From: Lyophyllum atratum | Taxonomy: Eukaryota > Basidiomycota > Agaricomycetes > Agaricales > Lyophyllaceae | Assembly: GCA_014905825.1 (NCBI GenBank) | Contig: JACGCN010000003.1 | Location: forward strand, 248,001-312,000 | Length of the DNA stretch: 64,000 nucleotides | Direction of reading: 5' to 3' | Shown here: piece by piece, positions 3,508 to 22,916 of the stretch | How the letters are laid out: each line of letters begins with the position of its first letter | Position numbering within the stretch: position 1 is the first letter of the stretch | Program-made: the position numbers and the translations under genes | Notes under the pieces: model-generated | Told to the model about the DNA's origin: nothing | Seen by the model: only the letters and a program-made list of their open reading frames with translations | Database searches by the model: none

Positions 3508-3671
3508 TTTTTCACAAAAAATTGATGGTTTTGTCCATTTCCGTGGTTTCGCTTGATGGATCCATGTCGATGCGTGGTTTTGATCGGTGAGTTCGTGCTG
3601 ATGCCATGGTCGCACTGTGTGGTTTGTGTCGCAATCAAGATCTCTGGTCCTAGTCTCCCACTCAAGCTCTC
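3508..3671 (+). repeat. Left terminal and subterminal region of giant element
   Basis: Terminal inverted repeat at 3508-3521, followed by inward-facing motifs of the form CGTGGTTT/TGTGGTTT near 3544, 3571 and 3620. The series continues beyond the nested copia element at about 8952-9045. Such motif arrays are typical transposase binding regions. The inner edge here is the copia target duplication CTCTC (3667-3671). Confidence 0.6.
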
Positions 3672-4064
3672 TGTTGATGATGGACTTAGCATAACCCTAT
3701 AAGATACGTCATACTTATTTCTATTTTTATTAACATGGTCACTATACTTAGATCTCGCTTATTTGTTTCGCCCTCGATGCCGTGCATCGAGACCCATCCC
3801 ATTCATTCCATGCCGCGCCTTGTTTACCAGTCTTTGCTAGTCGATATTTTTCTGTGTAGATATCCGGTATACCTACTCAAGCCACCCTTAGTCGTCTTAC
3901 ACTTCGTGTCTGGACTCTAAGGGTGAGCAGATCTTTACTTACTTCCAACTTCGTACCTTACTGACTGACCTCGTAGTTTACTTATTGTGATATTCTACAG
4001 GTCAATACAGTCGTCTTACACTTCGTGTCTGGACTCTAAGGTTTACTTATTGTGATATTCTACA
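3672..4064 (+). repeat. 5' LTR of copia element 1
   Basis: 393 bp, direct repeat of 8490-8882. It has an internal duplication: a block around TCTTACACTTCGTGTCTGG (3894-3920, again 4013-4039) and the block GTTTACTTATTGTGATATTC (about 3977, again about 4041) each occur twice. Confidence 0.95.
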
Positions 4065-4160
4065 GGTTATCGGGCCACGTTAGCTTCTGTGATTTCACAC
4101 CAGACATATCCCTAGACGGTCTCAAACATTACACTGCGCACACATCCCACATACACTAAA

Positions 4161-7100
4161 ATGTCTGCAAAACCGGTATCTACCCCGATTTTCCCAACGG
4201 CCGAGCAGTTCGACGGCCAAAACTTTGTGGCGTTCAAAAGACGCATTTTACTAGCGGCGCGCGCTGCAGGCGCCCGAGGATACCTCGATAAAATACCTTC
4301 CCCCATTCCAAAACCATCCCCACCCGCACCCGGCGCTTTACCTCCCGAGCCAACGGACTGGACCTCGACCACCCCATCAGTCAACGAATGGGAAACCCGA
4401 GACGCATGGGTGCTCGCGCTCATCTCGTTCAACACCACGAACCCTGTGGGACTGGGCGTTAAACAGGACGGTACCGCCGCTGAGGCCTGGGAAGGACTCA
4501 CCGAGCTCTACGGCAGCACATGCGAGCTCGCCGCTGCCGCAGCAGAGAAAAACCTCCGTACAACCACGTACTCGGACGGTGCGGATTTCCCGGCGCACGT
4601 CGCAGACCTCCGCACCAAGTGGAACACCGCCGTCGAGCAAGGTGCAGTGATAGACGATAAGGGCTTCCGAGCGATCGTGATAGGTTCCCTCCCGAAGTCG
4701 TGGAACATCGTCATATCTACCCTCCACACCACCAAAACGTCCGCCGCCGCTATTGCAGCGTTACACCTCCACTGGCAGATCGAAACGAAAGACAACCCAC
4801 CGGCAGGTCCGGCTACCACTGCCCTACATGCCAAAGCTTCGTCGAACACGCAGAAGCCGAAGCTGGTGTGCGTTAACACCAATTGTGGGCGGACTGGTCA
4901 CACGATCGACAACTGCTACTGGAAGGGAGGCGGAAAAGAGGGTCAATTCCCCTCCAACTTTAGGAGTCGTGCACGTACCAATTCCCAAGAGACCACATCC
5001 ACTAATAGCACCACAACTACTACGCCCGTAGCGGCTGTCGCCAATACCACCCCCAAAAACACATCCCGCGTTACCTACGCCCTGTCTGCACTCGCCGAGT
5101 CTCCCGCATCCGCTCAGTACACACCTGCTGCTTTCTTCGAGCTTGCCGACGCGTACCTATCCAAAGACGCCGCCGCCACGGCTATGGTTATGTCGTCGGG
5201 GGAGATCATGACTTACGCGGACTCCGGTGCAAGCGATCACTGCTTCGTCGAGCGATCTGACTTCACCGAGTACGAGAGGTTTGTCGTGCCGCGACAGGGT
5301 CAGCCAGCCGACAAAGATGGTTCCTTCTTCATTATGGGACGGGGAACTGTAAAGAAAACCGTGGTTATTAATGGGGCCGAGTCCGACTTGCTGTTCAAAT
5401 CAGCCCTACACACACCTGACTTGGCGGCGAACTTGATATCCATTGGGAAGTTCGACGCCGCAGGCTTCACGGTTACTTTCTCGTCGGGGAAGGCGTCCTT
5501 CGCGGATCCAGCTGGGAGAGTGTTCATGGTGGGAGAGGGCAAGGATGGGATGTATCGACTCCAGTTCGCTCCCAGGAAGGCCAGAGCTATGGTCGCACGA
5601 TCTCTTGATGTGCCTGTCGACCTAGACGTATGGCACCGCCGTTTTGGGCACGCCGGTGTCACTGGGTTGCGGAACCTGGTAAAGAAGGGTCTCGTTGATG
5701 GGTTACACATCAAGGGGAATCTAGATGTGGAGGGGCTGTGCGAGGACTGCGTGTATGGGAAACATGCTGCACGCCCATACGATGGTGTAGTCGTCCCCGA
5801 GACCGACCCGAATGATCGATGCCATATAGATCTTTGGGGACCCGCCACAGTTGCCTCGCTCGGGGGAGCTTGGTACATGATGTTGGTGGTCGACGGTGGA
5901 ACGTCTCGGATGCAGAGCTTCTACCTGTCGAAAAAGGACGCTGTTACGACATTATCAGCGTTCAAGAATTACCATACCGAGTCGGAGCGTCAGACCGGCC
6001 GGAAACTCCGTCGTTGCAGGATTGATGCGGGGAGAGAATGGGTCAACGCGCTGTGGTTCGAGTATTGTGGATCGCATGGCATTATCCTGGAGATTAGCAC
6101 CCCCTACGCCCACCCACAAAATGGACTAGCCGAGCGCTCGATACGCACCATAATCGAAGCCGTCTGCTGCATGCTCGTGGATAGCGGCCTCCCCAAACCT
6201 CTCTGGGCAGAAGCGGGGTCTACTGCCGTCACCGTGCGGAACCTGGTCCCATCGTCTCGTCACCCCGACGCTGTGCCCGAGGAGGCCTGGACGAAGAAGC
6301 GCCAAGCCGTCGCCCACTTACGTCCGTTTGGCTGTACTGCGTTCGCCAAAGTCCCCGAGGAACTCGTGGTTTCCAAATTGGATCCACGATCGATCAGATA
6401 CGTCATGGTCGGCTATTCCGACAGCGGATACAAATTGTACGATCAGGGGTCTCGGTCTATTATTACCAGCCGTGACGTTATCTTCGAAGAAGGTCTTGGA
6501 CACCGCGCTCTTACCTTACACAGCGACGACGACCTTCTCTCGGACACCCCACCTGCACCCGACCCCAACGCTCCGGGTGTTATCACTGCTAAACAACCCA
6601 TCGCACCCCGGATTCGTGCAACCGACGGTCCGCTTCACGCCGCCACGAAGGACCCTATCCATAACCCACCACCTAATTCCCGCACCGACGACCTCGACCT
6701 TCCTCTTGCCGTCCGCCGCCCACGTCGACATGCAGCTCCCACTCCGGCCATCATCGCCACCCGTGAATTCGAGGCCACGGAGGATGCTGCGGCCCGCGCA
6801 GGTGAACACTGGGCTGTAGACACCCCTCTTCCCCGCGCATTCATGGCCGAGGACTTCCCCGCTTTCCTCGCATCCCTCGACAGCGCCTCTTCTCCACTCT
6901 CCGATACATACCTCCCGAAACACTATGGGGAGGCCATGAGGCGCCCTGATCTGTGGCAGGCACCTATGGACACGGAGCTGTCAATCCTGAAGGAGCGGGA
7001 AGTTTTCCGCCTGGTACCAGCGTCGTCTGTGCCTGCGGGGAAAAAGGTTATAGGGTGTATGTGGGTGTATGCTCACAAGTTCGATGCCGACGGGAACATT

Positions 7101-8468
7101 GTTAAGCGGAAGGCACGTCTGGTAGCGAAGGGTTTCTCTCAGGTACCGGGGGAGGACTTCGACGAGACGTACGCGTCTGTGGTCAGGCTCGAGTCCATGC
7201 GGATGACCGCCGCGATCGCGGCGCAGCTGCGGTTGGAGATATGGCAGGTGGATTTTGTGTCGGCATACCTGAACAGCGTGTTGGACCACGTCGTCTATAT
7301 GCGGGTGCCGCCCGGGTTTCCAGGGGGGGAGGATAAGGTGTGTTTGTTACAGAAAACCCTCTACGGCATGATGCAGGGGGGTTACGACTGGTGGCATAAC
7401 CTTGATCGGAAGTACACCGAGATCGGCTACACGGCGTCGCGCGCAGACAGCTGCGTCCGGTGGAAGAAGGTGGACCAGGAACGCACCATCACTTGTACAT
7501 TCACCGACGACATATTTGGCATATCGTCGACCACTGAGGGGAAGGTACGGGCGAAGGAGGAGTTGGCGAAGTGTTATGAGATCAAGGACTTGGGGGAGCC
7601 CAAGTACATTCTGGGCATGCGCGTTGAACGCGATGCCGGCACCGGTGCGATCTCATTATCTCAGCGCGCGTACCTCGAACGAGTCCTAGAGCGTTTCGGT
7701 ATGGCCGACGCGAACCCACACCCCACTCCATTACCTACCGGCATCATCCTCGACGCGTCCCACTGTCCTCGTACCGACTCCGACCGCCACTATATGAAGG
7801 ACAAACCCTACCGCGAAGTACTGGGATCGCTCATGTGGGCTCAAGTCGCAACTCGCCCAGACATCTCCTTTGCGGTGGGCTTACTCGCACGCTTCCAATC
7901 AAACCCTGGACCTGCGCACTGGCGTGCGATGATCCACGTACTCGGATACGTCAAGGGTACGCTTGACTACCGTATCACTTACAGGAGCGTCGATGGCGGA
8001 CTTAAGCCTATGGGCTTCGTCGACGCCGACTATGCTGGGGACACGGACACGCGACGCTCGACGAGCGGATACGTGTTCATGATGGCCGGCGGACCCGTAT
8101 CCTGGAGCTCCCATCGCCAGCCCACAGTCGCGCTCTCCACTACAGAGGCCGAATATATGGCCTTGACGCGTAGTGCCCAAAATGCCCTATGGATGCACAA
8201 CTCCCTGGTGGAGATCGACCTACCCCAGCCACTCCCTGCTACCATCCGATGCGACAACACCTCCGCCATCGCCCTCACTCAGTCGACGAAGGGTCACACG
8301 CGCGCAAAACACATCGATATACGGTACCATTACATTCGTGAACGGGTAGCGGAAGGCGACATCCATATCACCCATATCCCCTCTGCTGAGAACGTCGCCG
8401 ACATCTTCACCAAGCCCCTCCCGCGCGTCGTCCACGAGCACATGGTCGACCTTCTCCACCTCAAGTAG
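4161..8468 (+). CDS. Copia gag-pol polyprotein (element 1)
   Basis: 1435 residues in one intact frame, translated as a Gag-Pol polyprotein that is cut by its own protease. Domains in order: copia-type Gag (about 1-230); zinc knuckle C-x4-C-x4-H-x4-C (CVNTNCGRTGHTIDNC, about 236-252); aspartic protease YADSGASDH (about 350); GAG-pre-integrase HHCC segment (WHRRFGH to CEDC, about 490-535); integrase core D/D/E (HIDLWGP about 555, DAGREW about 621, NGLAERS about 653); reverse transcriptase from about 960, with FTDD as catalytic motif (about 1113) where YxDD is usual; RNase H (VDADY about 1287, TEAEYMAL, DNTSAI). The stop lies 21 bp before the 3' LTR. No frameshift or stop is seen, so it may be active. 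The Phe in FTDD is unusual but conservative. Confidence 0.95.
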   Translation: MSAKPVSTPIFPTAEQFDGQNFVAFKRRILLAARAAGARGYLDKIPSPIPKPSPPAPGALPPEPTDWTSTTPSVNEWETRDAWVLALISFNTTNPVGLGVKQDGTAAEAWEGLTELYGSTCELAAAAAEKNLRTTTYSDGADFPAHVADLRTKWNTAVEQGAVIDDKGFRAIVIGSLPKSWNIVISTLHTTKTSAAAIAALHLHWQIETKDNPPAGPATTALHAKASSNTQKPKLVCVNTNCGRTGHTIDNCYWKGGGKEGQFPSNFRSRARTNSQETTSTNSTTTTTPVAAVANTTPKNTSRVTYALSALAESPASAQYTPAAFFELADAYLSKDAAATAMVMSSGEIMTYADSGASDHCFVERSDFTEYERFVVPRQGQPADKDGSFFIMGRGTVKKTVVINGAESDLLFKSALHTPDLAANLISIGKFDAAGFTVTFSSGKASFADPAGRVFMVGEGKDGMYRLQFAPRKARAMVARSLDVPVDLDVWHRRFGHAGVTGLRNLVKKGLVDGLHIKGNLDVEGLCEDCVYGKHAARPYDGVVVPETDPNDRCHIDLWGPATVASLGGAWYMMLVVDGGTSRMQSFYLSKKDAVTTLSAFKNYHTESERQTGRKLRRCRIDAGREWVNALWFEYCGSHGIILEISTPYAHPQNGLAERSIRTIIEAVCCMLVDSGLPKPLWAEAGSTAVTVRNLVPSSRHPDAVPEEAWTKKRQAVAHLRPFGCTAFAKVPEELVVSKLDPRSIRYVMVGYSDSGYKLYDQGSRSIITSRDVIFEEGLGHRALTLHSDDDLLSDTPPAPDPNAPGVITAKQPIAPRIRATDGPLHAATKDPIHNPPPNSRTDDLDLPLAVRRPRRHAAPTPAIIATREFEATEDAAARAGEHWAVDTPLPRAFMAEDFPAFLASLDSASSPLSDTYLPKHYGEAMRRPDLWQAPMDTELSILKEREVFRLVPASSVPAGKKVIGCMWVYAHKFDADGNIVKRKARLVAKGFSQVPGEDFDETYASVVRLESMRMTAAIAAQLRLEIWQVDFVSAYLNSVLDHVVYMRVPPGFPGGEDKVCLLQKTLYGMMQGGYDWWHNLDRKYTEIGYTASRADSCVRWKKVDQERTITCTFTDDIFGISSTTEGKVRAKEELAKCYEIKDLGEPKYILGMRVERDAGTGAISLSQRAYLERVLERFGMADANPHPTPLPTGIILDASHCPRTDSDRHYMKDKPYREVLGSLMWAQVATRPDISFAVGLLARFQSNPGPAHWRAMIHVLGYVKGTLDYRITYRSVDGGLKPMGFVDADYAGDTDTRRSTSGYVFMMAGGPVSWSSHRQPTVALSTTEAEYMALTRSAQNALWMHNSLVEIDLPQPLPATIRCDNTSAIALTQSTKGHTRAKHIDIRYHYIRERVAEGDIHITHIPSAENVADIFTKPLPRVVHEHMVDLLHLK

Positions 8469-8489
8469 GGTTATGAACGTCCGGGGGAG

Positions 8490-8882
8490 TGTTGATGATG
8501 GACTTAGCATAACCCTATAAGATATGTCATACTTATTTCTATTTTTATTAACATGGTCACTATACTTAGATCTCACTTATTTGTTTCGCCCTCGATGCCG
8601 TGCATCGAGACCCATCCCATTCATTCCATGCCGCGCCTTGTTTACCAGTCTTTGCTAGTCGATATTTTTCTGTGTAGATATCCGGTATACCTACTCAAGC
8701 CACCCTTAGTCGTCTTACACTTCGTGTCTGGACTCTAAGGGTGAGCAGATCTTTACTTACTTCCAACTTCGTACCTTACTGACTGACCTCGTAGTTTACT
8801 TATTGTGATATTCTACAGGTCAATACAGTCGTCTTACACTTCGTGTCTGGACTCTAAGGTTTACTTATTGTGATATTCTACA
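8490..8882 (+). repeat. 3' LTR of copia element 1
   Basis: Identical to the 5' LTR except two transitions, CpG to TpG (GATACGTC to GATATGTC) and CpG to CpA (ATCTCGCTT to ATCTCACTT). Ends at TTCTACA and is followed by the CTCTC duplication (8883-8887). Confidence 0.95.
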
Positions 8883-8887
8883 CTCTC

Positions 8888-9690
8888 AGGTGAGTTATTT
8901 GAAACTGCATCAACATATGTCCTGCTAACAGATATCCCATTGAGGTTTACTTTCGTGTGGTTTTTGAGTCGATCGCGATGTGGTATTGGTGGAATCTGGT
9001 CACGTGTCGTGGTTTGTGGACCGTGGTTTGTGGTTTGTGGTTTTTGATTTTTGATTTCTGATTTCTACTTCAAGCATTCGACAACTCGATTGCATTCCGT
9101 GCATTCCGCTCGAGGAACTGCAGGGAACTGCCGCCAACAGCCTAGAATTGTGCCCCGTCGCGTCCGGCAAAACCTCGGCCGAGCGTCACGTCACATGACG
9201 TCATCTTCGTACCGTCGTCGGTCGACCTCAACCACCATCGTCACGACGCCCTGCCCGCCTGGATGCCTCTTTGACCCTCGCCCCGCAATCCACGGCATAC
9301 ACGTCGCTTTGAGCGACGTACACTACGGCCTGTAGGCCCTCCGATTTCGCGGGATCGACCATAGACGGCCGAGGGCGAGTGAGGCCTGTGTGCCTCAGGG
9401 ACGGGTTTTGGCGTGCTTTTGAGCACACTGGCGAGGTTTTCGAAGGTGCGTATACCTTGCCGTATGTCCGGGATTAGTCTACTGACCATGTTAACAGCTG
9501 GGGAGCGACTTTTTAGGTTTCATGGCCAAGTTTGCCCCCTCCGCACGTCCAAGCCGTGCTTCTCCACGATGGGCGCGGCCTTGACCCCCCATTTTCACTT
9601 CCTTGCCATCCACCCTTGTGTGGATGGACTCCGACGTTCTTTCTGAGCCCACCATGAGCTCTACCGCTCCTGCATGACGCGTGAACACGC
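8888..9690. other. Non-coding left arm of giant element
   Basis: Continues the subterminal array: TGTGGTTT-type motifs at about 8952, 8978, 9008, 9023, 9030 and 9037, then a T-rich run. A TGACGTCA palindrome (CRE/ATF-like) lies at 9196-9203. Short open frames on both strands show no recognisable domain and are not called as genes. Confidence 0.45.
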
Positions 9691-9699
9691 CATGCACCG

Positions 9700-10690
9700 T
9701 CCCATTCCCCTTCCTCGACATCCTCGCGATCCAGGGCCCAGCCCTGCCCAACTTTTTGAACCGACCCCAGAAAGGCCTCGCCAGGTCCCTCCTCCACCCG
9801 TTCCTACTGCGACTCGCCCTCCAGTAGCTTCGGGTCGTCGTCGACGAGCGCGACGATGGCGACGACCACCCTATTCCCCCTACTTCGGTGTCCTCGCGAT
9901 CCATGGCCCATCTCTACCCGCCGTTTTCGAACCGATGCCAGAAAGGCCTCGCCAAATCCTTCCTGCACCCGTCTCTACTGCGATTCCCCTCCCAGCAGGT
10001 TCAGCACATCAGCGACGACGACAACGACGGCCCCATCCCCCTAGCTCGACTTCCTCGCCCTCCACCAGTTACCCCCGCAGGCCGTTTTCGAAGCAACAGC
10101 AGAAAGCCGTCACCAGGGCCCTCCTGTACCCGCCTCCACTGCCATCCGCCTTTTGGCGGCTTTGGCTCGTCGTCGACGACGGCGGCGACGACTCCAGCCC
10201 CCTACCCCGTCTTCCTCGGCCTCCACCAGCCACCTCTGCCCGCCGTTTTCGACCGGACACGAGGAAGGCCTTGCCAGGGCCTTCCTGAACACTTTCCCAC
10301 TGCCATCCGTCATCGGACGGCTTCGGCTCGTCGTCGCCGTCGGCGACGACCGCCCCATTCCCCGACCCCGACTTCCTCGCGATCCTCAAGCCCACCTCTG
10401 CCCGCCGTTTTCGACCGGACACGAGGAAGGCCTTGCCAGGGCCTTCCTGAACACTTTCCCACTGCCATCCGTCATCGGACGGCTTCGGCTCGTCGTCGCC
10501 GTCGGCGACGACCGCCCCATTCCCCGACCCCGACTTCCTCGCGATCCTCAAGCCCACCTCTGCCCCCTGTTTTTGAACCGATGCGAGAAAGGTCTCGTCA
10601 GGGCCCTCCCGCACCCCTTTCCACTGCCATCCGTCATCGGACGGCTTCGGCTCGTCGTCGCTGACGGCGACGACCTCCTCATTCCCCTAC
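9700..10690. repeat. About 161-bp tandem repeats, roughly six copies
   Basis: A unit containing CCGTTTTCGA...GAAAGGCC recurs at about 9750, 9921, 10082, 10243, 10405 and 10566 (spacing about 171, 161, 161, 162, 161). The units starting at 10243 and 10405 look identical; others have diverged. Long open frames run through it on both strands, but 161 is not a multiple of three, so the frame shifts from unit to unit, which argues against coding. GC-rich minisatellite in the giant element, upstream of the dioxygenase gene. Confidence 0.8.
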
Positions 10691-10861
10691 CTCGACTCCT
10701 ATGTACCGGTAGCTCACTGTCTCCCTGTAGAATAGTTTATTTGGAATTACATCGAGCATAGGCCTGTGATACATCTATGCAGCCCTTGACGAAACTACAA
10801 TAATCCACTGACAACCGACCACCAACCAACGACCATCGACCACAGACGGCGTCATCTCGCG

Positions 10862-10874
10862 GTCACGTGACGTC
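10862..10874. promoter_or_regulatory. GTCACGTGAC palindrome upstream of dioxygenase gene
   Basis: The palindrome GTCACGTGAC (10862-10871), overlapping a GACGTC half, contains the E-box CACGTG. It lies about 85 bp upstream of the dioxygenase start codon. Such a site could bind bHLH or bZIP factors, but function is inferred from position only. Confidence 0.3.
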
Positions 10875-10955
10875 GGAACGGAGCAATCTTCGGACTCGCG
10901 AGCATCGTTGAACTCGAACATTTTGTCTCTCACTCGTTGACTACCACTTTTCACA

Positions 10956-12766
10956 ATGGCTAAGCGTAAATCTAAAGCTATGGCCGAAGCCTTCAAAGCT
11001 GGTAAGTATGTAACAGCTCTAATCACTGCAGATAATCACATCCTTGCAGTTCAGGAACTCTTATCAGATCCCAGCACCATGACAGAATTGGATCGCATCT
11101 GCCAGTCTGGAGAGAGCATTTCGGAATCCTCTGCTATTCTAGAGCTCCTGGAAGAGGTCAGGAAGACCTTGAACAAACCTGATTACACTGTATGTCATCT
11201 TTTGGTGCTCACTGCTGAGGTCCAATGTTGACCATCTGTAGGTCGAAAACCTGATCACTGAGGGGCTGAGCCGGGCAAAGGGAGTTCAAAACCGCCGGGA
11301 GACCTTTCTCAAAGTGAAACACCACTATGATGCATCCCAACTCGATGGTCATCCGGCACAGGCATCCCACTGGGCAAAGCGCCACATTGTACGTGATATC
11401 TATTTAGATTTTTGACATTAGTGCTGACCTTTCATGCCGCCAGAAACGTGCTCTAGGATTATCTGCTGAGCCTTTTTCGGTCAAGTCGATGCTTGAGGCT
11501 GGAAAGACGCTGGACTCCGTCAAGATTATCTTTCGTAACCGCGCGGCCAAGACCCCGAAACTTCATCGGTTCATGGTGGAAGTCGCAGGCGATGATGAGG
11601 ACCAACTCGTCGTCAATGAAGACACTGGCTTCTATGTCGTTCCTCCTGACGAATCCGTTGTTTTTGTCTCTCGAACTGCAGATGGAGGTGAGTTTTTTGT
11701 TCTTACTATTGCGAGTAAACCGTTGATCAAAGTGTAGGTATTGAGATCGAGCTTGCCGTTATCCGAGGTGTTGCAACTCGAGCAGCATTTTCTGGAGACC
11801 TGTACAGCTGGCTCGTTCAGGTAGTCGATAACGCCTGTAGTGAGCGGAGAGATGTTCGGGTAAGCTTGCCTCTCATATGCACTGGTTTGGACTGACAGAC
11901 ACCTCTAGCCAGATCATGAGGGCTGTATGGTACAGGCTGGGCTCAATCTCGGTCCACGTCATGCTAGAGTCCTTGGCTGGGCAAAGAGCTATACCAAAAA
12001 GCTCGATGCCAAAACCAAGACTGAACATGACGAGGATGTCATAGGGGCTGTGAGTCTTTTATGGAGTTTGGTACAGACTGCGATGCCTCAGGAGGTCGCA
12101 GAACATGTTCAAAAACAGCTTGACGCCAGCCAGCTGCCCACGGTCGCCACCAGGAATGTACCCAAAGGTGAGCCTCATTTGAATTACATCCTGATACTGC
12201 TCATCTCATTAATCTCAAGGGAATGGGTTCCATCTCCGTATGGGGGATAAAGTGTACACATTTAACATGGCTAAACGTGCACCACCGGAAGTGTATATGT
12301 CCCGTGGCTACATTGCGTACGAATTACTGATTTCATTACCGCATAACTCTGATGTATCATTGGCAGGTGGACTCACGTCGACCCTGCGTTTTGCAAATAT
12401 GCATTCTCTTTCTGCGTCGGCAGACAGATCTTAGAACCCACAGGTAGAAAACGTAAAGCCACCCAGCCCTTGTCAGATGGGCCAGCTGACGGTGGTGCAA
12501 ACTTTGTCGATGCAAGTTTGGGCGTTGTTGTCAAGCAAGCAAAGGGCACAATCTTTGGATTCAAACCTGAGTACCTCCATGGTACGACCAAGAGCTATGG
12601 TGTGCTCAATCATGCGGTTACGATTACTTTTTCTCGACGTGTCGCTGATGCCTGGTTGGAGCTTGAGGCCGCTGACAGGATCAAAATCGAATCCTCTGCA
12701 GGAGCCGGGGAAGGGAATGTAGAGTTTGAGGCAGCCAAGAAGTTGAAAGGCAAATCACGTAAATGA
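10956..12766 (+). CDS. TET/JBP-like 2-oxoglutarate/Fe(II) dioxygenase
   Basis: Predicted 484 residues from eight exons: 10956-11001, 11050-11189, 11242-11388, 11444-11687, 11738-11859, 11909-12167, 12220-12316, 12367-12766; exon lengths sum to a whole number of codons. TET/JBP enzymes oxidise 5-methylpyrimidines in DNA using Fe(II) and 2-oxoglutarate. The C-terminal third carries the oxygenase signature: H355-x-D357 in WTHVDPAF, distal H423 in EYLHGTT, and R442/R443 in ITFSRR for the 2-oxoglutarate carboxylate. NFVDASLGVVVKQAKGT forms the expected strands between. The N-terminal region starts with basic MAKRKSKAM and is otherwise unrecognised. All introns are GT-AG, 48-55 nt. The gene looks intact and sits in the giant element. 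Assignment to 2OG-Fe(II) oxygenases is fairly firm; TET/JBP rather than a sister family is inferred from motif style and context. Confidence 0.65.
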
Positions 12767-12871
12767 TTCCACGTTTTGTAACCGGTAGTTGAAACAAGGT
12801 TGTGTTTCTCGCCTGATCCATTTGAGGACTTTTGCAGTGGGTACAGCCATATCTGGACAGCCTAACCACAG

Positions 12872-13270
12872 CCTCAGCCAGATAGGGTACGTCACGGGTA
12901 TTCCCGCGGGTTGACCTCGGGCTTATTTCGAAGCGCGTGGATATCCAAACGCGTACCCGTGCGGGTAAGGGTACAAAACCTGCATGGGTAACCCACGTCC
13001 TCAGCCAGATAGGGTACGTCACGGGCATTCCCGCGGATTGATCGGGGCTTATTTCGAAGCGCGCAGGTATCCAAACGCGTACCCGTATCCGTACCTGTAT
13101 CCATGCGGATAAGGATACGAAACCCACACGGGTAAGCCACGACCTCAGCCAGATAGGGTACGTCACGGGTATTCCCACGGATTGATCCCAGGCTTATTTC
13201 GAAGCACGCGGGTATCCAAACGCATACGCATACCCCCCGTGCAGGTAAGGGTACAAAACCCACACAAGTA
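12872..13270. repeat. Tandem repeat, three copies of about 127-144 bp
   Basis: CCTCAGCCAGATAGGGTACG begins units at 12872, 12999 and 13143. Each unit contains GCTTATTTCGAAGC and several TACCCG/CGGGTA palindromic words; the second unit is longer by an internal duplication of such words. It lies between the dioxygenase gene and the convergent unknown gene. Non-coding; possibly an internal remnant of another mobile element. Confidence 0.8.
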
Positions 13271-13587
13271 TTTTTGATTTTTCATTGATTTTTTTTTTGA
13301 AAATACCTGTATGATCCATGGGTTCACCCACAACCTGTGCGTAACCTGTCTACCCCCACGTACCTGCTAGTGAACCCCGACCCAGGCGCTGGGGTATAGG
13401 TGAACTGAGATCAGGGTGCGGGTAAGAAAATATTACCCAATGACCCATCGCCTCGAAACTTGTGGCTGCCGTATGCTGCATGTGTGATGAACAATAAAAC
13501 CCTTGAAATTGGGTAACATGTTAAGATATTAAAGTCTTTGTAACAAATTATAGGACATGAAAATAGAATAGGAAGCAGAAGAGAAAC

Positions 13588-13670
13588 ATATGGCTGGTAT
13601 TAAATATTAAGAGAGCAGGTAAAGGGAACATACTGCTGGTATTAAAGATTAAGAGAGTGAATAAAGGGTA
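13588..13670. repeat. Short tandem duplication, two copies of about 41 bp
   Basis: The word CTGGTATTAAA followed by ATTAAGAGAG and TAAAGGG occurs twice with about 41-bp spacing, just downstream of the minus-strand gene. The rest of 13271-13676 shows no gene. Confidence 0.5.
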
Positions 13671-13676
13671 AAAAGG

Positions 13677-15085
13677 TCAGATATCCAAGTATGAAGCAAT
13701 ACGCCTCCGTTCAGGTGAGAAGACTGATTTTTGAACAAGCTTCGATGCAAGAACCTCGTCTGAATTGTTGGATGTAGCAGATGGTGCGCGCTCTTGATCA
13801 ACCCCACCAGAAGGCCTGAACATCCAGCAGATTGCTCGCCAAGTGCGGTACAGCATGTACTGTTCACCACATTCTATTCCTGTTAAATATGAAAATGGTG
13901 AGATAAATGAGGAGTGTAATTCGCTGTCTATCCACCCACCTGGTATGTCACCTTTCCACGAAGCCTGTGCAGCCCTCTCAGCCCAGAAATACCCAATACT
14001 TTTTTTGGAGTATGAAGCTTCAGCCCATCCGAGTGCGTCTAAAACCGCAGACGACTTGAGATTGAATCCGCGGTATGTGATTTTAGCAGCGGCCTTGGGA
14101 TCGCAGCGAAAATCAGGCAGTCCGAGTCTGACTAGAAGAGTGGATACAGCACGGTGCTGAACGACCAATGAAGTGAGAGAGGCATGGTTATTGGATGCAT
14201 ACCGGGCAGCAGCAATATCTGCAGCAGAAACCTGTTCGGCTTCAAAAACCCCCTGAACAGATGTAATGTTGGGACCTTCAAAGCTCGGGACAGGGCCTGC
14301 AGCTCCTGGAAGAGCCCCTGAAAATGCGAGTGCAGCGGGTGTGGTGTTTTCGGATGAGAGAAAGAGTTCGGTGATGTTAGGGCCAGGTGTTCCCAACATG
14401 TTGTGAAACACTGTAGGAGGATCGTCAAACAGGAGTGGATGCGAGAGAGCTGGGGATGGGAGGGGTAGTGTGGTAGGCAGGATAAAGATGAGAACAAAGT
14501 GAGTCCCAGGCTGTACATTCAAGGGTGCCCAAGTGTGGGTAAATTGAACAGTTTTGGGATGGCTAGCATCGAGTGCAAATAGCCTTTGCTGAAAAGGTGT
14601 GGCTGCTTCGATGATAGAAAAGTCTACAGAGATGGTAGAGAGATGGTCAAGTAACCGAAATCCATGTGCTGGATTTTGAAGCTCAGCACCAAAATCTGGC
14701 ACTCGTGTAGTCGCCAGGAAGGTAGAGAGAGTCGCCAAAGTAAGAATGTCATGAAGCCATTGGGGAAGTCTTCTAAACTGGTTTCGAAGAGCTGCAATCA
14801 GAGTGGATATGTGGATGGAAGCTATCCCCTCATGATATGTAATTAAGCCAGATATGACTGAGACTGTGACGAATTCACTGCTGGTCAGAACACCATTGCT
14901 CAGCAGAACAGCAGAACATGTGAGAGTCTGTAAGTCGGGGTCAAGGACACTGAACACATCTGTAACTGCAGCATAGATAAATACAGAACTTCATGCTATT
15001 AAGTCATCAACTGACACACCTGCTGATGGATCCATACACCTGCTTTTCTTTCCGAGGGCTTACGACAGATGACAAAAAGTGTGCC
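13677..15085 (-). CDS. Unrecognised protein of giant element
   Basis: A 426-codon open frame (13677-14957) with clear coding character continues upstream through an exon at about 15000-15085 reading TLFVICRKPSERKAGVW, joined by an intron whose acceptor is near 14967. The start codon is not resolved. A 60-nt piece (about 13874-13933) has GT-AG borders and may be a further intron, in frame either way. Segments include GLPDFRCDPKAAAKITYRG and SIGYFWAERAAQASWKGD. I do not recognise the family and see no catalytic motif or membrane segment. It is divergent from the integrase gene (about 100 bp between them), so the two may share a promoter. It may assist transposition, but that is only inferred from its place. 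Confidence 0.55.
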
Positions 15086-15185
15086 AGCAGTGCGAGTTAC
15101 ATCTCGTCACAGTCACAGAGATGTGATATTCGAGATAATCTGATCCTCAGACGAGCATGATTGTGTGATAAACTCACCAGCCCCC

Positions 15186-17219
15186 ATGTCGACTGAGCCA
15201 GCCAACCCACATCTTGATGTCCTTAATGCTTTTCGGATCCATTACTATCGCTACTGCCAAGCAGTTCACAATGCTGCAGGCTCAGGAACTGACTCTACTG
15301 TCCTTGAAAGGCTGGGCGACGACCTTGATGTGTTTGCGAATCTGATCAATGAGGTATTTAGTCAAAATTCATCTTGAAATGAACCATTTTTCAGAAGCTG
15401 AAATTAATCTAAATCTCAGCATGCGAACATTTTTGAACCAGAAGAGCTGAATCTTTTTCAAAATAATGTCCGAGCTATGCAGAATGATGTTCGGCAGCAG
15501 TATGAGCACACTCTCAACCATTCGCACTATGGCCACCCAGTTGTTGTCCAAACAGTCCGAACAGGCAGACAGGGCAGGCCTGCAGTCCAGATTGATCCCG
15601 ACTTTCTTCGATGGGCATACTCGGTTCGCTCAACATCTGCAATTAGCAGGTTTTTGAATGTTAGCAGGCAGACTGTTCGGAATGCTTTGCTCGAGCATGG
15701 GATAGTGCAGCCACAGGCAGATCCCTTTCTCCTTTCACCAGAAACTGCTGAGGAAAGTGAGCTAATCTATTCCAAATCTGTCATGACCATTTTTTCTCAT
15801 GCCTGCTTCCACCGACCTGTTAATATCTTAGCTGGTTCTGATACCCTGGCCAGACCAGAAAATCTGGAAGCTGATGACATTCTTGACCCACATCTTCCAA
15901 TTCCTAGTCAAGTTCTCCCCAGCTCCGGGTCCAACTCTCCTGCTCCTGTAGCTGAACTGGCTACTTTGGGTAGTAGGCCTATCTTATCCTTTACTGGATC
16001 TCTTTCAACTCTTACAGATCAAGAACTTGATGAGATTATTCTAAATCTCAGGCAGCGTTACCGCCGTGCAGGTGTAACCATGCTCCATGGTATGCTCCTC
16101 CAGCTCGGGCACCGGGTTCCCCGTGAACGCATCAGGCTCTCTCTATTACGTATTGATCCGGTCCAGCGCATTTTCGAGAGGATAAGGATTCGGCGCAGAG
16201 TATACTCTGTTCCAGGACCCAACTCGCTATGGCATCATGATGGACAGCATGGTACGCAGCTTTGAGGTTTTCTTTTATCTGTTTCTAATCAAATATCCAG
16301 GACTTATACGGTGGGGCATTGTGATCCACGGCTTCATTGATGGCTACTCCCGCCTAATCACTGCGCTTCAAGCAAGTAACAATAATCTAGGGCAGACTGT
16401 CCTTGAGCTCTTTTTATCTGCCTGTGGCCTGTACGGTGTACCATCACGCCTACGTGGAGATCATGGTGTCGAAAATCTACGTGTTGCAGCATGGATGGAA
16501 CAGTACTGGGGCCAAAGACGTGGATCATATATATGGGGGCGGTCTGTTCTCCCGACTTCTGCTATAGAATGGCGGGATGTTAATGCCTACTTTTTTATAG
16601 AAGTGTACACAATGTCCGGATTGAGCGGCTATGGGTTGACGTCACAGCTCAGCTGGGTTCAGCTTGGGCAGACCGCTTTGTACAACTTGAGCTCCACCAT
16701 GGCCTAAACATCAACAATACTGCCCAAATCTGGCTTCTCCACCATCTATTCCTTCCCACTATCAACCAGGAACTTACGTTCTTTGCGCAGTCATGGAATA
16801 ACCACACTATCCAGATACGCAGTGGACCTAACCGGTCGCCGGTGGATATGTTTGGATTTGATATGCTTGTCCATGGTGTGCGTGGGGGAAATCTGCATGA
16901 AGAGGACTTGACGGAAGAGGAGCTTGAGGTTTTTGGAGTTGATTGGGAGGCCTTGCGGGATGAAACTGTGCTGGATTCAGTACGCGGAAACGCACCACAA
17001 CGTGAGGAGTCTACGTCATGGATTGGAAGGGCTGGCCCCCCGGAGCACTTGAATGAGGTTCCATTGAATCCACCTGACCTATCTATACCCCAGGACAGCA
17101 TACCGAATTTCGACCAGCTGCTCGACGGTATCTTGAGCCATGCTGAAGAGGTGGATTCTGCAACCATCTGGGTTCATGGGCTCGCACTGGCAAGAAGGAT
17201 GTATGGTGATGTGTTTTAA
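15186..17219 (+). CDS. DDE integrase-fold protein, probable transposase of giant element
   Basis: Predicted 619 residues from four exons (15186-15353, 15420-16251, 16301-16541, 16601-17219; sum divisible by three). A helix-turn-helix-like stretch, ISRFLNVSRQTVRNALLEHG, lies at about residues 130-150. An rve-type catalytic core follows: D330 in LWHHDGQH, then IHGFIDGYSR, D387 in RGDHGVEN and E422 in VRIERLW, with 34 residues between the last two, as in retroviral-type integrases and related transposases. The core style (LIRWGIVIHGFIDGYSRLI) is that of the integrase-core family found in many eukaryotic cut-and-paste elements. All catalytic residues are present and the exons join cleanly. An acidic tail follows. 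By elimination it is the transposase of the 13.9-kb element. Its superfamily (Ginger-, IS3EU-like or other) needs phylogeny. Confidence 0.75.
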
Positions 17220-17315
17220 TAGGTACATAGGGCTTTGCCTGTATTGTTACACTTGTAAAAAAAATCGTAAAAAAATTGATACTCATTGCTGATGGCATGT
17301 TTCGAGAAGTGACCT

Positions 17316-18089
17316 TAGTGATTCGAGGTCCAGTTGTACCAACCGCAAAAAACCGGCAACCCAACCGGACCACGACCGATCCCAACCGGACCTGCGGTTG
17401 CGGTTGTTCAGAATTTTAGGCGGACAACCGCGGTCCGGTCGCGTGGTTCAGTGCTTGAGGAACCGGCAAAAACCGGTTGTGATCAGTCACAACCCCAGCA
17501 GGGAGAGCCAGCAGGTGCGTCATCAGCACACACTCCTCCCACCGTCTACTGACCACCACCCACCCAATAGGTGATCGAATTCCCTCCCACGTCAACGCGC
17601 CGCCGCCTACAACAGCCGCCCTGCACCCACCATGTCAGCAGCCCACGCCAGCCGCCCCCATGTAGCTTGCTCGCCAGCCGTCCTCCATGTCGCCCACTCG
17701 CAGCAGCTTCCCATGTCACTCGCTCGCCAGCTGCCCCCCATGCCGCTCGCACGCCAGCAGCCTTCTGCGTCGCTCGCATGCCAGCCCCTCCACGTCTCCA
17801 GCTCCTGTACACAGAGGAGCCCGCAGTCGTGGGTCTTCTTTTTGCAGGAGCTATGTCTGAGGTGTGGAGCTGCTGGTGCGACCGGTCGCGACCGGGCTAC
17901 GACTGGTTGCAGCTGGGTTCAGTTGCAACCGGTTTTGACCGGGTTGAAACCGTAGCACGACCGACACTGACCGGTTGGTCGAGGTCCAGTCGTCGGTCGT
18001 TCCCTTTCTGTTGTGCAAGCGACCGGTCTCGGTCGCGGCCGGGCCCAACAATGGCCGACAACCGGACCCGACCGGACCTCGAAACACTA
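17316..18089. mobile_element. hAT-type non-autonomous element (774 bp)
   Basis: Left end TAGTGATTCGAGGTCCAGT, right end read inward TAGTGTTTCGAGGTCCGGT (two mismatches in 19). Flanked by a perfect 8-bp duplication AGTGACCT (17308-17315 and 18090-18097). An 8-bp duplication and TAG-type ends point to hAT. The interior has no transposase but many AACCGG/CCGGTT words near both ends, probable transposase binding sites. GC-rich open frames inside are not genes. Inserted between the integrase and HECT-like genes. Confidence 0.85.
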
Positions 18090-18243
18090 AGTGACCTATG
18101 GTTATACTTATCGGTGGCCTGCTAGTCACTGAATAACTGCTTCAAGTGTTCTCAACTCAACAAAAAAAATCAGTCATTTTGTACAGTGAGGCAGGTCGGT
18201 GAAGTTAGTAGAATCTGCCCACATTAAAGGTGGTGAAAACTTT

Positions 18244-18343
18244 TGCATTGGTGGGGAATTGAACCAGCACCCTTGGGTTCGTAAGCTCAACCTTCCAACG
18301 TTAATTCACAGTCTTAGGATTGTAACCACTCTACCATAGCACC
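18244..18343 (-). other. tRNA-like sequence (possible tRNA pseudogene or SINE head)
   Basis: On the minus strand, GGTAGAGTGGTTA resembles a Pol III A box and GGTTCAATTCC a B box, 60-70 nt apart in a 100-nt block. The acceptor ends pair only partly and the T stem is mismatched, so a functional tRNA is unlikely. No anticodon can be assigned. Confidence 0.3.
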
Positions 18344-18607
18344 AGTTATTAACGACATGAGTATGAACAAATATAACACAGTCACAATGGTACTAACCAA
18401 GATTCAACAGCTGCTAATGCATATCAAGGCCCGAGGTGACTTCAAAATAGTGTGAAAACAATGACATTAACGAGCTAGGCCTGTAATATGTGCCAGCCAA
18501 TCGAGCAGATAAATGTAGGGGTAGAAATAGGTAGGGCAGTATACTAAATAAGTAAAGACAGCTATAGAGAAAAATTATGGGTATAGGTAGCATGCCATGC
18601 CAGGTAT
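18344..18607. other. Intergenic within giant element
   Basis: About 260 bp between the tRNA-like block and the stop of the HECT-like gene. Nothing recognisable. Confidence 0.4.
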
Positions 18608-21600
18608 CTAGGCAAAACTGTGACGACCAATAACATTGAGAATCTCACAAAGGAACCAGTGGTCGAATGCCTTCTGGAAGGTTTCAATTTCTGGGTTCTC
18701 TGGGTCGGGATAATCAGCTCGGACCAGTTTCAAAATATGGCTGCCTGGAAGGCGAGCTGTTCGAAGACAGGTTCGGAATGAGATCTTTCCCTGTGACACC
18801 ATCATAGCCCTTAGGGGTGCAGTGCCAGCATACATAGGGTCGTCATCCCTGCAGCATATTATCTATGACAGCATTGAGTGCTCACATCAACAGCGAGGGA
18901 ACGAAAACACATACTGATATCATATCTGAGGCAGGATCAAGTGAAGGAGACCCAGTAGCTGCCCAAGCAAACATACGAGGGCGAAAGCCTGGGGTGTCGA
19001 GTTTGGTTAAATCAATGGCAGGGCTAAAGCTTTCTTTGATTTCTGCAAAGCGAGTCGGAGAAGGCAACCCTGAGCCCTGGAAGAAGGCCCCGATGATGGA
19101 TTGAAGGGACAAGTTGTCGTCTGTAACCAGGGCCAAAGCTGATGTGAACTCGGAGGGGGTTCGACCCCAGGATAGGTGGGGAGACAGTGAAGCAAAATCA
19201 CTGATGTGAGAAGTCCACACCACACTAAAGAAGGCCTCTGAGCCTCCTTCAAACTGCCTCGGTACCTGGATGATATGAAAATGACTATGAGAATAATTAT
19301 GAACCGAGAAAATGCACTTCTACTCGCCTGAAAAAAGTCAAACCCATTTCTGCATGGCAGTTTGCAGCCAGAGATAAAGGCCTGCCACTCAGGATGGCGA
19401 TAGTCTTCAGGACCCATGATCGCTCGGTAAAGCATTGCTGCAGCCATAGAATTGTGCGAGGCATCAGTCCGACGAGACAGTGATGAGACCTTGAAAATAG
19501 CTGTCAGTATAGGAAGGAGTAGGGCAGATCGTACTCGCCTGGAGGTCATGGTAAGTAGCCAGATGACCTTGAAAGGGCTGAATATTCCCTGTAGGACCTG
19601 TCTGTTTCCAGTCGAGGATGAGCTGGTGGAGATTAGGGTGCCACTCCCCTATGAAGGCAGGGTGGAGGGAGTGCAGGTCGCAGCCATGGACAATAAATTG
19701 AAATATGGAAGGATCAAGTGGGGATGGGCTGAGACCCATGATCATCATGATCGAGCAGAGGGCCCCAAGCTGCTTGAGAGCAGCCAGCCTTTCAGCAGGA
19801 ATATGTCGTGCGACCATGGCTGAGTAGGCTGTCTGAAGAGTCGCAAAGCTATCTTCCCGATGGTTGAACCACTCGGCATGGGTGGTAGTAAATGTTTGAA
19901 AAGCTGTGAAAACAGTTTCTCGCTCAATGCCCTGGCCAAATGACAGGGTCGATCCTGATGAGGTGGTCCTGCAATACCAGAAATTAGAGTGGGTTGCGAT
20001 TTTGAAGCCGACTGGACTTACACAGTAAAGGACCGATCAGGTGAAAGTACATCAGTATAATCATTCTGCTCGCCTGCAGCTGCAATCATAGCAAGGAAAG
20101 CAGTCGCAAGGGCCGACACATTTGGGCCTCGGAGTTTAAGCTTTTGTAAGCTACTGTTCGCAGCTTCAAAGACTGCTGATGCTAAATTGCTGACAGAGTA
20201 AAGACCCTGGCGATCAGCAAAGGCAGACACCCATTCTTCCGAGGGGCTCCAGATAGCCATAGGCAAGAACGAGTTGGCCGACGAAAATGACACCTCACGA
20301 GGTGGAGGTGGATTGGTGTCGGTGCTGTTGTCAACTGGAACCGACTGTAAAAAAATGGATCAGCCAGGGAATAATGGATTCTGTTTGAAGATTCATACTG
20401 AGTTCAGTCGGCTAGACCTTCGCTGGGTCGGAGCATTGGAAAGGTCCCAGGGACGATCCTCATCATCTGTCATCTCGACATCAAAGTCCGAAGAAGAGTC
20501 AGAAAGAATAGGCTCGCAGTCGCAGGTAGGTTCGGAAGAGGAGCTGTTGGAAAGGCTACCAGCATTGTCATGAGGAAACAATCGGGCCATGTGCTGATCA
20601 AGACATGTGTGTCGCATATGATTGAGTACCAGCGACACTGGATGGTGAGCAATTCCTAGAAGTTGTGTTATGAGCAAATTTATTGGATGAAATAAACCAA
20701 ATCTTACCAAAATAGATGACGAGTCTATTGGCCTCAATACAGACAGGTTGATTGAACCGATGCTTGTCACTTGCCAGAGAAGAGAGCTTCAGCTCGGGAT
20801 CATGGAGAGGGATGGCTTTGAGCCGAATTTGTCCATCTTTCCGAGCAGTTCCTTTGTTGACAAGGGCAAGGAGCTGAAGAGGAAGTACCTCATGTGCGAG
20901 AAGGGAGGATTGGCCCGACTGCTGAAACTGGAACTTATATTCCGACTCTTGCATCAGCTCAACAATAGTGTTGATGAGAGAGACGACTTTGACTTCAGCA
21001 GGTACTTCAAAGTTGTAAAGAAGGCCATGGCTCGCCAGAAACATTGTAAACGAGTCACGATAGAATCGGAACAAAAATCTCTCGTCCTGCATGCCCTCCT
21101 GTTTATCAATCGTTTGAGCAACTTGGATCACAGCATATGACGATATGGGACTTACAGTCGGAGGATACACTTTTATAGTGAGTCGCAGAGTAGGTACCTC
21201 AGAACCTTCCACATAGCAAAGGCTTACATCAGGACGAGGAGGAGTCGGCAAAGAAGGGGGATGAACCGATGGTCCCCGAACAGACCGACTTGTTGTGCGA
21301 GATGCTCGGCGAGGAAGCTGGGGTTGCTGCCGACTGCTAGATGAGGCTGAAGAGGCAAGTCTTGCTTGATTGACCTGTCCAGTGTTCAGGTTGCCTCCTA
21401 GACGAGCAAAAGACATGGGAAGGAATGGCTGCTGAGAGGAGGATGTTGTTGCTGGGGCAGGCTGTGAAGGTCGAACAAGAGCCTGGATGGACTGGTAGGG
21501 TTGAAGGACTGGAGGTGCTGAGGGCACAGGCACCGAAAACGAGGGAACCAAGGGTTGCACTGGAGGCTGTGTAGGAAGCTGGAGAGAGGCCGAGTGATGG

Positions 21601-21749
21601 CTTGAAGATAGTGAGGAATTGGCAGGATTAGAGAATGCTGATGGAGATGGAAAGCCTGGAAGAGAGGGAGACGAGGACCCTCCTGCTGGTATGTGTTGGC
21701 TGATGAGAGCCTCAATCTGCTGCCGAAGATCGGGAGGGAGATGATCCAT
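18608..21749 (-). CDS. Large protein with HECT-like C-terminus
   Basis: Predicted 944 residues from seven exons: 20708-21749, 20399-20655, 20022-20344, 19539-19968, 19328-19489, 18886-19265, 18608-18848; lengths sum exactly to whole codons. The first 150 residues are Ser/Pro/Gln-rich and disordered. The central part is helical and unrecognised, with an acidic patch (SDSSSDFDVEMTDDED). The last 250 residues contain FFQGSGLPSPTRF, FRPRMFAWAATGSP and SFRTCLRTARLP, then a short tail, resembling the end of HECT ubiquitin ligases, where a Thr-Cys pair in a strand carries the catalytic cysteine. HECT assignment is tentative. Two introns use GC donors (GCGAGT) after CAG, and one intron is only 37 nt. 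Convergent with the integrase gene, apart from the nested hAT element. Ubiquitin-ligase cargo would be unusual; a structural comparison would decide. Confidence 0.5.
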
Positions 21750-21842
21750 TGAGTTAAAATAAAATCTAAAGACGAGTCGGCGAATTGGGAATTAGTCGGA
21801 TTTACTTGTCCTAGATATGTTCAGACTCACATTAGAAGGAGA

Positions 21843-21897
21843 GTCGGTAATCAGGCGAGTGACAGATAAGTCGGTAATCAGGCGAGCGACAGATAAT
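21843..21897. repeat. 27-bp tandem duplication
   Basis: GTCGGTAATCAGGCGAG followed by GACAGATAA occurs twice in tandem, just outside the 5' end of the HECT-like gene and next to the MITE. Confidence 0.6.
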
Positions 21898-21902
21898 GCA
21901 GA

Positions 21903-22058
21903 CACCGGAGGCATTGTATATGGCATGTGAATTCGACATGCCTTCAGTTCATGTTGAAATGAACATGAAGTATCCGCCTGCAATTTCAGACTTCATGTTG
22001 AGAAGAACATGAACTCGAGGCATGTTGATGTTACATGCCTCGGCAAATGCCTCCGGTG
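21903..22058. mobile_element. CACTA-like MITE (156 bp)
   Basis: Begins CACCGGAGGCATT and ends with its complement ATGCCTCCGGTG. The inverted similarity continues inward (GGCATGT, ACATGCCT, AGTTCATGTT), so nearly the whole element can fold. Flanked by a 3-bp duplication AGA (21900-21902 and 22059-22061). CAC ends and a 3-bp duplication indicate CACTA. The inner motif TGCCGAGGC is shared with the ends of the 9.3-kb CACTA element at 22819-32093. Confidence 0.75.
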
Positions 22059-22061
22059 AGA

Positions 22062-22665
22062 CAAGAAATAAATAACGAGTGAACGACAGTTAAGCTGGAG
22101 GGCAGTGATCAGTTTATATATCAACTGATTCCCTGCGAGACTTACCTTTGCGAGGAGAAATCCAGAGTGACAAAAAGGGAGAAGCAGTAGAAATTTCATT
22201 CGAGAGGCAGAGACAGAACTCATTTATACCACCTCAGGTGGGCCCTGGATGTCAGCAAAAAAACATATAGCCTGCTAGGTGGCAAGCCAGACGACACACC
22301 AGGAGGTTTTTGGTCGGGAGGAGAGACCATACGACTGGCAAGTGAGACAAACCACACAGGCTACCAAGGGAGACCATTGAACCCGACTGGACGAGCAATA
22401 ACCATATGGCTTCGTAGCCAAAACGACTCGATTTGACTAGATTCAGGGATAGTACAAGCATAGGCTCTAATCAGACCACATAATCGCCGAAAACCACACG
22501 AGAGCTGCAGAGAAACCACACGACAGCCAAAAATGCCCATAATACATACCTGTTCTCACAACTAACAGAGCTAAAGCACGTCAAACCAAATGAGACCATG
22601 AACCTCACGGAACTACCATCAAAATCTCGACCACATTTCACCGAGCATTCTTTTTTTGTGAAGAA
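22062..22665 (-). repeat. Right terminal and subterminal region of giant element
   Basis: No gene. Read inward (minus strand) it carries TGTGGTTT-type motifs (complements at about 22289, 22349, 22480, 22493 and 22514) mirroring the left arm, and ends with the terminal repeat TTCTTCACAAAAAA (22652-22665). Some copies vary (TATGGTCT, TGTGGTCT). This mirrored array is a main reason for placing the element border here. Confidence 0.6.
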
Positions 22666-22673
22666 TAATGTCA

Positions 22674-22818: not shown

Positions 22819-22916
22819 CACAAGGGGCAAATGCCGAGGCGGTTGAATTTCAACTGCCCTTCAGTCGATTGGACGGCACCTGGCCCGTAGTTGAACGGTG
22901 GTTGGCTGGTGGTTGG
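22819..22916 (+). repeat. Left terminal inverted repeat of CACTA element
   Basis: Pairs with 32018-32093. It has about 20 extra bases in the inner half compared with the right copy, and ends inward at GGTTGGCTGGTGGTTGG. It contains the near-palindrome GGCGGTTGAA-TTTCAACTGCC, which is perfect in the right copy. Confidence 0.85.

What the first reader, a model, noticed from the sequence alone, without database searches (positions are those of the whole stretch)
3508..22665. A roughly 14-kb DNA transposon carrying TET/JBP-like dioxygenase, DDE integrase, HECT-like protein and an unknown gene
Ends match (13 of 14 bp), an 8-bp near-duplication flanks them, mirrored TGTGGTTT arrays lie inside both ends, and removing the element rejoins a kinase frame. 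TET/JBP genes in basidiomycetes are known to travel with KDZ transposons, but here no KDZ transposase is present; an rve-type integrase sits in the element instead. A mobile unit combining DNA-methyl oxidation, a possible ubiquitin ligase and an integrase-type transposase would be a new kind of cargo transposon. Left unproven: superfamily, HECT identity, and whether all four genes move together.
Basis: partly seen in the sequence, partly recalled or inferred. Interest (0 to 1): 0.9.

Follow-up and report, generated by a model that had tools for sequence, protein, structure and literature searches.

The report
Mushroom IS3EU-type transposon carrying TET-like oxygenase
This is a real, recently inserted "jumping gene" in a mushroom genome that carries its own mobility enzyme plus a TET-like DNA-modifying enzyme, a possible ubiquitin ligase and an unknown protein; such elements are known from rust fungi, and this looks like a new mushroom version with different passengers.

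The parts
3498..22675 (+). whole IS3EU-type element (19,178 bp with nested Copia; 13,962 bp without it and its 5-bp duplication)
   Evidence: shared ends with second copy C72:672777-688824 and empty alleles C100, C141
3492..3497 (.). left copy of 6-bp target duplication GCTTCA
   Evidence: single GCTCCA in empty allele C100
22676..22681 (.). right copy of 6-bp target duplication GCTTCA
3498..3521 (+). left terminal inverted repeat TATAATGGCATTTTTCACAAAAAA
   Evidence: 18 of 24 match right end; pattern with up to 3 mismatches found only at the 4 ends of the 2 copies; the reversed control pattern matched once
22652..22675 (-). right terminal inverted repeat TATGACATTATTCTTCACAAAAAA
3543..3625 (+). 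left subterminal GTGGTTT repeats (3543, 3574, 3619)
22349..22520 (-). right subterminal repeats AAACCACA (22349, 22491, 22513)
3672..8882 (+). nested Copia LTR retrotransposon, gag-pol ORF 4116-8468, LTRs 2 mismatches in 393 bp, 5-bp duplication CTCTC
   Evidence: absent from second copy
10956..12766 (+). TET/JBP-like dioxygenase, 8 exons, 484 aa, H355-x-D357...H423
   Evidence: model identical over 484 aa to annotated protein FPV67DRAFT_1574567; fold
13677..15035 (-). unknown gene, ~414 aa, 3 exons (start and second intron uncertain)
   Evidence: no internal stop in either copy
15186..17219 (+). DDE integrase/transposase, 4 exons, 619 aa, D330 D387 E422 (DD34E)
   Evidence: Pfam rva_4 E 3.7e-66; NCBIfam IS481 E 1.2e-11; spacing
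18608..21749 (-). HECT-like gene, 8 exons (two GC-AG introns), 920 aa, Cys868 in FRTC
9707..10715 (+). 162-bp tandem repeats between left end and TET gene
   Evidence: related array in second copy

Best explanation
A cut-and-paste DNA transposon of the IS3EU/GingerRoot type in Lyophyllum atratum. The rve-type DD34E integrase most likely binds the TATrA ends and the subterminal GTGGTTT repeats and inserts the element with staggered cuts 6 bp apart. The TET/JBP-like dioxygenase most likely oxidises 5-methylcytosine on the element's DNA, so that it can be expressed or excised despite host methylation. The HECT-like protein probably acts as a ubiquitin ligase on a host silencing factor or on the integrase. 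Shown: ends, 6-bp duplications, two empty alleles, a second copy, the integrase family, a TET-like predicted fold, and sequence constraint on the genes taken together. Inferred: demethylation, ubiquitin-ligase activity, who binds what.
Against: No phylogeny against Repbase IS3EU (not held). The rust TET+ IS3EU ends (TAYGG, repeats over 30 bp) and alpha-kinase gene are not matched. The TET type is undetectable by Pfam or PDB sequence searches; Foldseek TM-scores are low (query-normalised 0.29-0.40 for the TET rows) and the other four AlphaFold models have lower mean pLDDT (72.6-65.7). 0 of 13 TET homologues share a contig with a listed integrase. No Pfam HECT hit in 22 of 22 homologues, and none at the element in the genome-wide HECT search. 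Only 2 copies found (a lower bound), one of them with a broken HECT-like gene, so present activity is unknown.
Confidence: 0.82

Rival explanations
1. The TET-like gene is a relic of another transposon (KDZ, Plavaka) that happened to land inside or next to an IS3EU element, and is not a working part of it.
For: A Plavaka-like element (name from recall) lies just to the right, from about 22818. TET homologues elsewhere do not share contigs with the listed integrases, 0 of 13. Decayed TET relatives sit on C141 and C72 at places the integrase search does not list.
Against: The gene lies inside both copies between shared ends, its frame is intact with 5 synonymous and 2 nonsynonymous changes, and the second family carries another TET-like gene between its integrase and HECT-like gene.
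Confidence: 0.12
2. The 920-aa protein is not a ubiquitin ligase but a transposition accessory or DNA-binding protein whose resemblance to HECT (Cys near the C-terminus) is superficial.
For: No Pfam HECT match in any of 22 homologues; no PDB profile match; HECT family search of the genome misses it; hhalign probability only 1.5-2.3%.
Against: UniRef names at least 2 of 22 homologues HECT domain-containing (some names are cut in the listing); the Cys is invariant in 22 of 22; the profile alignment falls in the HECT N-lobe register and 2 of 100 column shuffles reach the score.
Confidence: 0.3
3. The dioxygenase is CMD1-like and attaches a vitamin-C-derived group to 5-methylcytosine, or works on 6mA, rather than doing TET-type stepwise oxidation.
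Against: TET2 is within 1 Z unit (tied) and ranks first in Foldseek; a shared fold shows no activity.
Confidence: 0.2

Closest known systems
TET+ IS3EU families of Pucciniales and Tuber indicum (Kojima 2025, PMC12730594)
   Same: IS3EU-type transposase, 6-bp duplications, TA ends, a TET/JBP gene inside the element
   Different: Host is an agaricomycete, from which the text lists only Kyakuja, Zisupton, EnSpm, Plavaka and Helitron2 as TET carriers; no alpha-kinase match; HECT-like and unknown genes instead; ends TATAA/TATGA rather than TAYGG, repeats 24 bp with mismatches rather than over 30 bp; TET has HxD, not the HxE of the PE type (to which the paper assigns the Tuber element)
IS3EU/GingerRoot superfamily (PMC10045372)
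   Same: TA..TA ends, 6-bp duplications, IS3/IS481-like integrase
   Different: large multi-gene cargo; placement by tree not done
KDZ and Plavaka elements carrying TET/JBP in mushrooms
   Same: TET/JBP cargo in a DNA transposon of Agaricomycetes
   Different: no KDZ or Plavaka transposase among the four gene models; 6-bp rather than 8-, 7- or 2-3-bp duplications
CMD1, TET2, NgTET1, CcTET
   Same: predicted fold, HxD...H metal triad
   Different: 10-14% identity over the aligned part

Membership tests
IS3EU/GingerRoot | TA..TA termini | tested here: met
   TATAATGG...TGTCATA in 2 copies; TATGAC...GTCATA in 2 copies of the second family
IS3EU/GingerRoot | 6-bp target duplication | tested here: met
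   4 of 4 insertions examined; 2 of 2 empty alleles examined
IS3EU/GingerRoot | DDE integrase related to IS3/IS481 | tested here: met
   NCBIfam IS481 E 1.2e-11 and IS3 E 0.0015, both below the models' own cut-offs; rva_4 E 3.7e-66
IS3EU/GingerRoot | groups with Repbase IS3EU in a transposase tree | not testable with these tools
   Repbase sequences not held
TET+ IS3EU as described in rusts | TET gene between transposase and alpha-kinase; TAYGG ends; inverted repeats over 30 bp | tested here: not met
   no alpha-kinase among Pfam hits of the four genes; ends TATAA/TATGA; 24-bp repeat; order here TET, unknown gene, integrase, HECT-like
TET/JBP dioxygenase | double-stranded beta-helix fold of the TET/JBP branch | tested here: met
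TET/JBP dioxygenase | HxD...H metal triad | tested here: met
   H355, D357, H423; conserved in the 12 of 14 aligned homologues that cover the region, 2 end before it
TET/JBP dioxygenase | oxidises 5-methylcytosine | not testable with these tools
   needs enzyme assay
PE-type TET (Tuber IS3EU) | HxE instead of HxD | tested here: not met
   HVD in the sequence; HxE hallmark from PMC12730594
AG- or PU-type TET | conserved residues of the type (figure 7 of PMC12730594) | not tested
   figure and alignment not held
HECT ubiquitin ligase | recognised by the HECT profile (PF00632) | tested here: not met
   0 of 22 homologues; absent at the element in genome-wide search
HECT ubiquitin ligase | HECT fold | not tested
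   structure job for A2 never accepted
HECT ubiquitin ligase | catalytic Cys in a C-terminal TC motif | tested here: met
   Cys invariant in 22 of 22; Cys868 in FRTC here; that it is catalytic is inferred
KDZ transposons | 8-bp (Zisupton, Dileera) or 7-bp (Kyakuja) duplication and KDZ transposase inside | tested here: not met
   6-bp duplication; no KDZ Pfam hit in the four gene models

The most novel reading that the evidence does not exclude
Mushroom IS3EU elements form a separate lineage that carries a two-part counter-silencing kit: a TET/JBP enzyme that strips DNA methylation and a HECT-type ligase that removes a host silencing protein, with the TET part exchanged between families (two TET-like genes that do not resemble each other in one genome) and, in one family, a Ulp1-like protease added.
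Probability: 0.3. Interest if true: 0.75.

Novelty: new variant of a known kind. Interest (0 to 1): 0.5.

Why it matters
It extends TET-carrying IS3EU elements to mushrooms with different passengers. It also offers a natural test of whether transposon-borne TET enzymes protect their own element: the genome holds full and empty alleles of the same sites, so methylation can be compared directly between the element and its surroundings. The recurring integrase plus HECT-like pair suggests that protein turnover may be part of the life cycle of these transposons.

Tried and rejected
Rejected: the 8-bp near-duplication and the ends 3508/22665. Rejected: KDZ or Plavaka origin of the whole element, because the Plavaka-like sequence begins outside it. 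Rejected as evidence: sequence comparison of the two TET-like families, since 67 of 100 column shuffles reach the observed hhalign score. The second family's gene is called TET-like only from its HxD and HGG motifs, recalled from the fungal TET literature; PDB searches with it found no TET and its Pfam scan found nothing. Led nowhere: PDB sequence searches for TET and HECT profiles, the integrase core and the 543-aa protein of the second family (two weak unrelated hits); Pfam for the unknown gene. No homologue search was left for the unknown gene; in this genome it was found only in the two copies. Papers: IS3EU with HECT, 0 papers; IS3EU with Agaricomycetes, 3 papers, of which I read only PMC12730594. 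Of, and of the other papers, I saw the listings only. Of PMC12730594 I read the outline, parts 1-4 of 7, the figure legends and search passages; its supplementary tables could not be opened. Of PMC10045372 I saw search passages only.

Full report
The element and its borders. The window is G000:C75:248001-312000 of a 64.8-Mb genome that a 100% identical annotated protein names as Lyophyllum atratum. A second copy lies on C72:672777-688824, minus strand. The main aligned blocks from window 10693 to 22675 are 98.3-98.9% identical, one 334-bp block is 96.4%, the left 175 columns are 94.3%, and the stretch 8883-10697 is lower (78-87%); window 21870-22058 has no counterpart in C72. Both copies begin TATAATGGCATTTTTCACAAAAAA and end ..TTTTTTTGTGAAGAATAATGTCATA. 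The flanking duplications are GCTTCA in the window and CAAGTG in C72, 6 bp and perfect. The element is therefore 3498-22675. A 24-bp pattern of the ends, with up to 3 mismatches, was found in the genome at these four places only; the reversed control pattern matched once.

Empty sites. The assembly holds two haplotypes: canonical HECT genes come in pairs of contigs. The window's left flank matches C100:272764-273596 and its right flank C100:273591-273733, overlapping by exactly 6 bp. The empty allele reads GCTCCA once where the window has GCTTCA twice, and a paralogous locus on C80 has GCTTCA once. The flanks of the C72 copy match C141:1271799-1273264 and C141:1271051-1271804, again overlapping by 6 bp. 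In the C100 allele a frame that looks like a protein kinase runs through the site; the kinase name is my reading, not a search result. Both insertions thus appear to be present in one haplotype only.

Nested and internal sequence. A Copia element at 3672-8882, with 2 mismatches in 393 bp of LTR and a CTCTC duplication, sits in the left part of the window copy and not in the C72 copy. Subtracting it and one 5-bp duplication leaves 13,962 bp. GTGGTTT occurs 3 times near each end in both copies; in the C72 copy 6 in 525 bp against a mean of 0.18 and a maximum of 3 in 2000 mononucleotide shuffles. Such repeats are commonly transposase binding sites; that role is inferred.

Integrase. The 619-aa protein (15186-17219) matches Pfam rva_4 (E 3.7e-66) and, below its cut-off, rve, and the NCBIfam models for IS481 (E 1.2e-11) and IS3 (E 0.0015), both below their curated cut-offs. 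Its catalytic triad is D330, D387, E422 with 34 residues between the last two. 493 homologues were found, 120 listed. According to PMC10045372 (search passages), complete IS3EU families have TA..TA ends and usually 6-bp duplications. I file the element under IS3EU/GingerRoot on these three features; a tree against Repbase was not possible.

HECT-like gene. The 920-aa model (21749-18608, minus) has 21 homologues outside this species among 22 hits. At least two of the 22 are called HECT domain-containing by UniRef. A C-terminal cysteine, mostly in an F-R-T-C or F-H-T-C context, is invariant. Against this, Pfam HECT matches 0 of 22 and the genome-wide HECT search does not list the element among its 28 matches. 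A profile of four canonical HECT genes of the same genome aligns to the expected N-lobe region with hhalign E 0.02-0.034 but probability 1.5-2.3%; 2 of 100 shuffles reach the score. One of the four canonical sequences has a tail not taken from the locus. The fold could not be run. I call it probable at about 0.7.

Do the genes move and work together? All four lie between the shared ends of both copies. Comparing the copies, synonymous/nonsynonymous changes are 5/2 (TET), 4/4 (integrase), 2/3 (unknown), 13/9 (HECT-like, 260 of 391 bp of one exon covered). Pooled, 24 per 1734 against 18 per 5448 sites, Fisher p 4.5e-6. The unknown gene alone has too few changes to judge. The C72 copy has a 1.25-kb insertion in the HECT-like gene and a 2-nt gap in the last exon of the integrase. 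Outside this genome, 7 of 21 non-self HECT-like homologues lie on a contig whose length equals that of a listed integrase homologue from the same species (Pholiota molesta 69 kb with consecutive locus tags; two each in Mycena polygramma and Favolaschia claudopus; one each in M. filopes and M. latifolia), while 0 of 13 TET homologues do.

A second family in the same genome. C69:416966-435475 and C88:368417-386281 are two copies, 97.6-98.2% identical in their two main aligned blocks, with no alignment outside the element within the 40 kb taken from each contig (pieces under 150 bp not shown), ends TATGACATTA.. and TATGACAGCA.., and duplications GTGTTC and GATTAG. They carry an integrase (56-81% identical to the window's, exon by exon), the HECT-like gene, a TET-like gene with HxD...H (602-aa model), an open frame of 560 aa without Pfam match, and a gene resembling Ulp1 proteases by the motifs HWVLAHVD...DCGVY (motif recalled, no profile match in the pieces scanned). 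No homologue of the unknown gene was found there. Relatives of this TET-like gene occur on C1, C130, C60, C70 and C64.

What is known. Kojima (PMC12730594; abstract, parts 1-4, legends and passages read) describes TET-carrying IS3EU families with 6-bp duplications from seven rust species and one family from a truffle, always with the TET gene between transposase and alpha-kinase. For Agaricomycotina it lists Kyakuja, Zisupton, EnSpm, Plavaka and Helitron2 only. HECT and ubiquitin do not occur in its text, and no paper in the held library has both IS3EU and HECT. Its supplementary tables were not readable. This element is therefore a new variant: same transposon superfamily and same type of cargo, new host class and different passengers.

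Mechanism. Shown: cut-and-paste structure, 6-bp staggered insertion, presence in one of two haplotypes, coding constraint on the genes taken together. Inferred, following Kojima's proposal for other TET carriers: oxidation of methylcytosine lets the element escape methylation-based silencing. Inferred with less support: the HECT-like protein ubiquitinates a host silencing factor or controls integrase level.

Noticed in passing
G000:C69:416966-435475 and C88:368417-386281: Second IS3EU-like family with integrase, HECT-like, TET-like, Ulp1-like genes and a 560-aa unknown frame; 6-bp duplications GTGTTC and GATTAG.
   Followed up: partly
window 22818-25700: Plavaka-like transposase sequence (name from recall) starts 143 bp right of the element; near-identical sequence on C102 and relatives on C35, C130, C46.
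   Followed up: no
window 21870-22058: 189-bp stretch with 69-bp inverted arms (21903-21971 / 21990-22058) upstream of the HECT-like gene, present in the window copy and missing from the C72 copy; perhaps a small foldback insertion.
   Followed up: no
window 9707-10715: 162-bp GC-rich tandem repeats inside the element, array differs between the two copies.
   Followed up: no
window 12815-13270: Three diverged direct repeats of about 100 bp downstream of the TET-like gene.
   Followed up: no
window 32977-33008 and 37830-37861: Perfect 11-bp tandem unit GTAAGTGGTTG, 2.9 copies, at two places about 4.9 kb apart.
   Followed up: no
L017 (C141:1103000-1112999) and L018 (C72:423000-432999): Decayed relatives of the TET-like gene next to Gypsy-like reverse transcriptase and another dioxygenase-looking frame (names by eye).
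   Followed up: partly
HECT-like gene 18608-21749 and the TET-like gene on C88: Three predicted introns with GC-AG rather than GT-AG borders: two in the HECT-like gene, one in the chosen C88 model.
   Followed up: no
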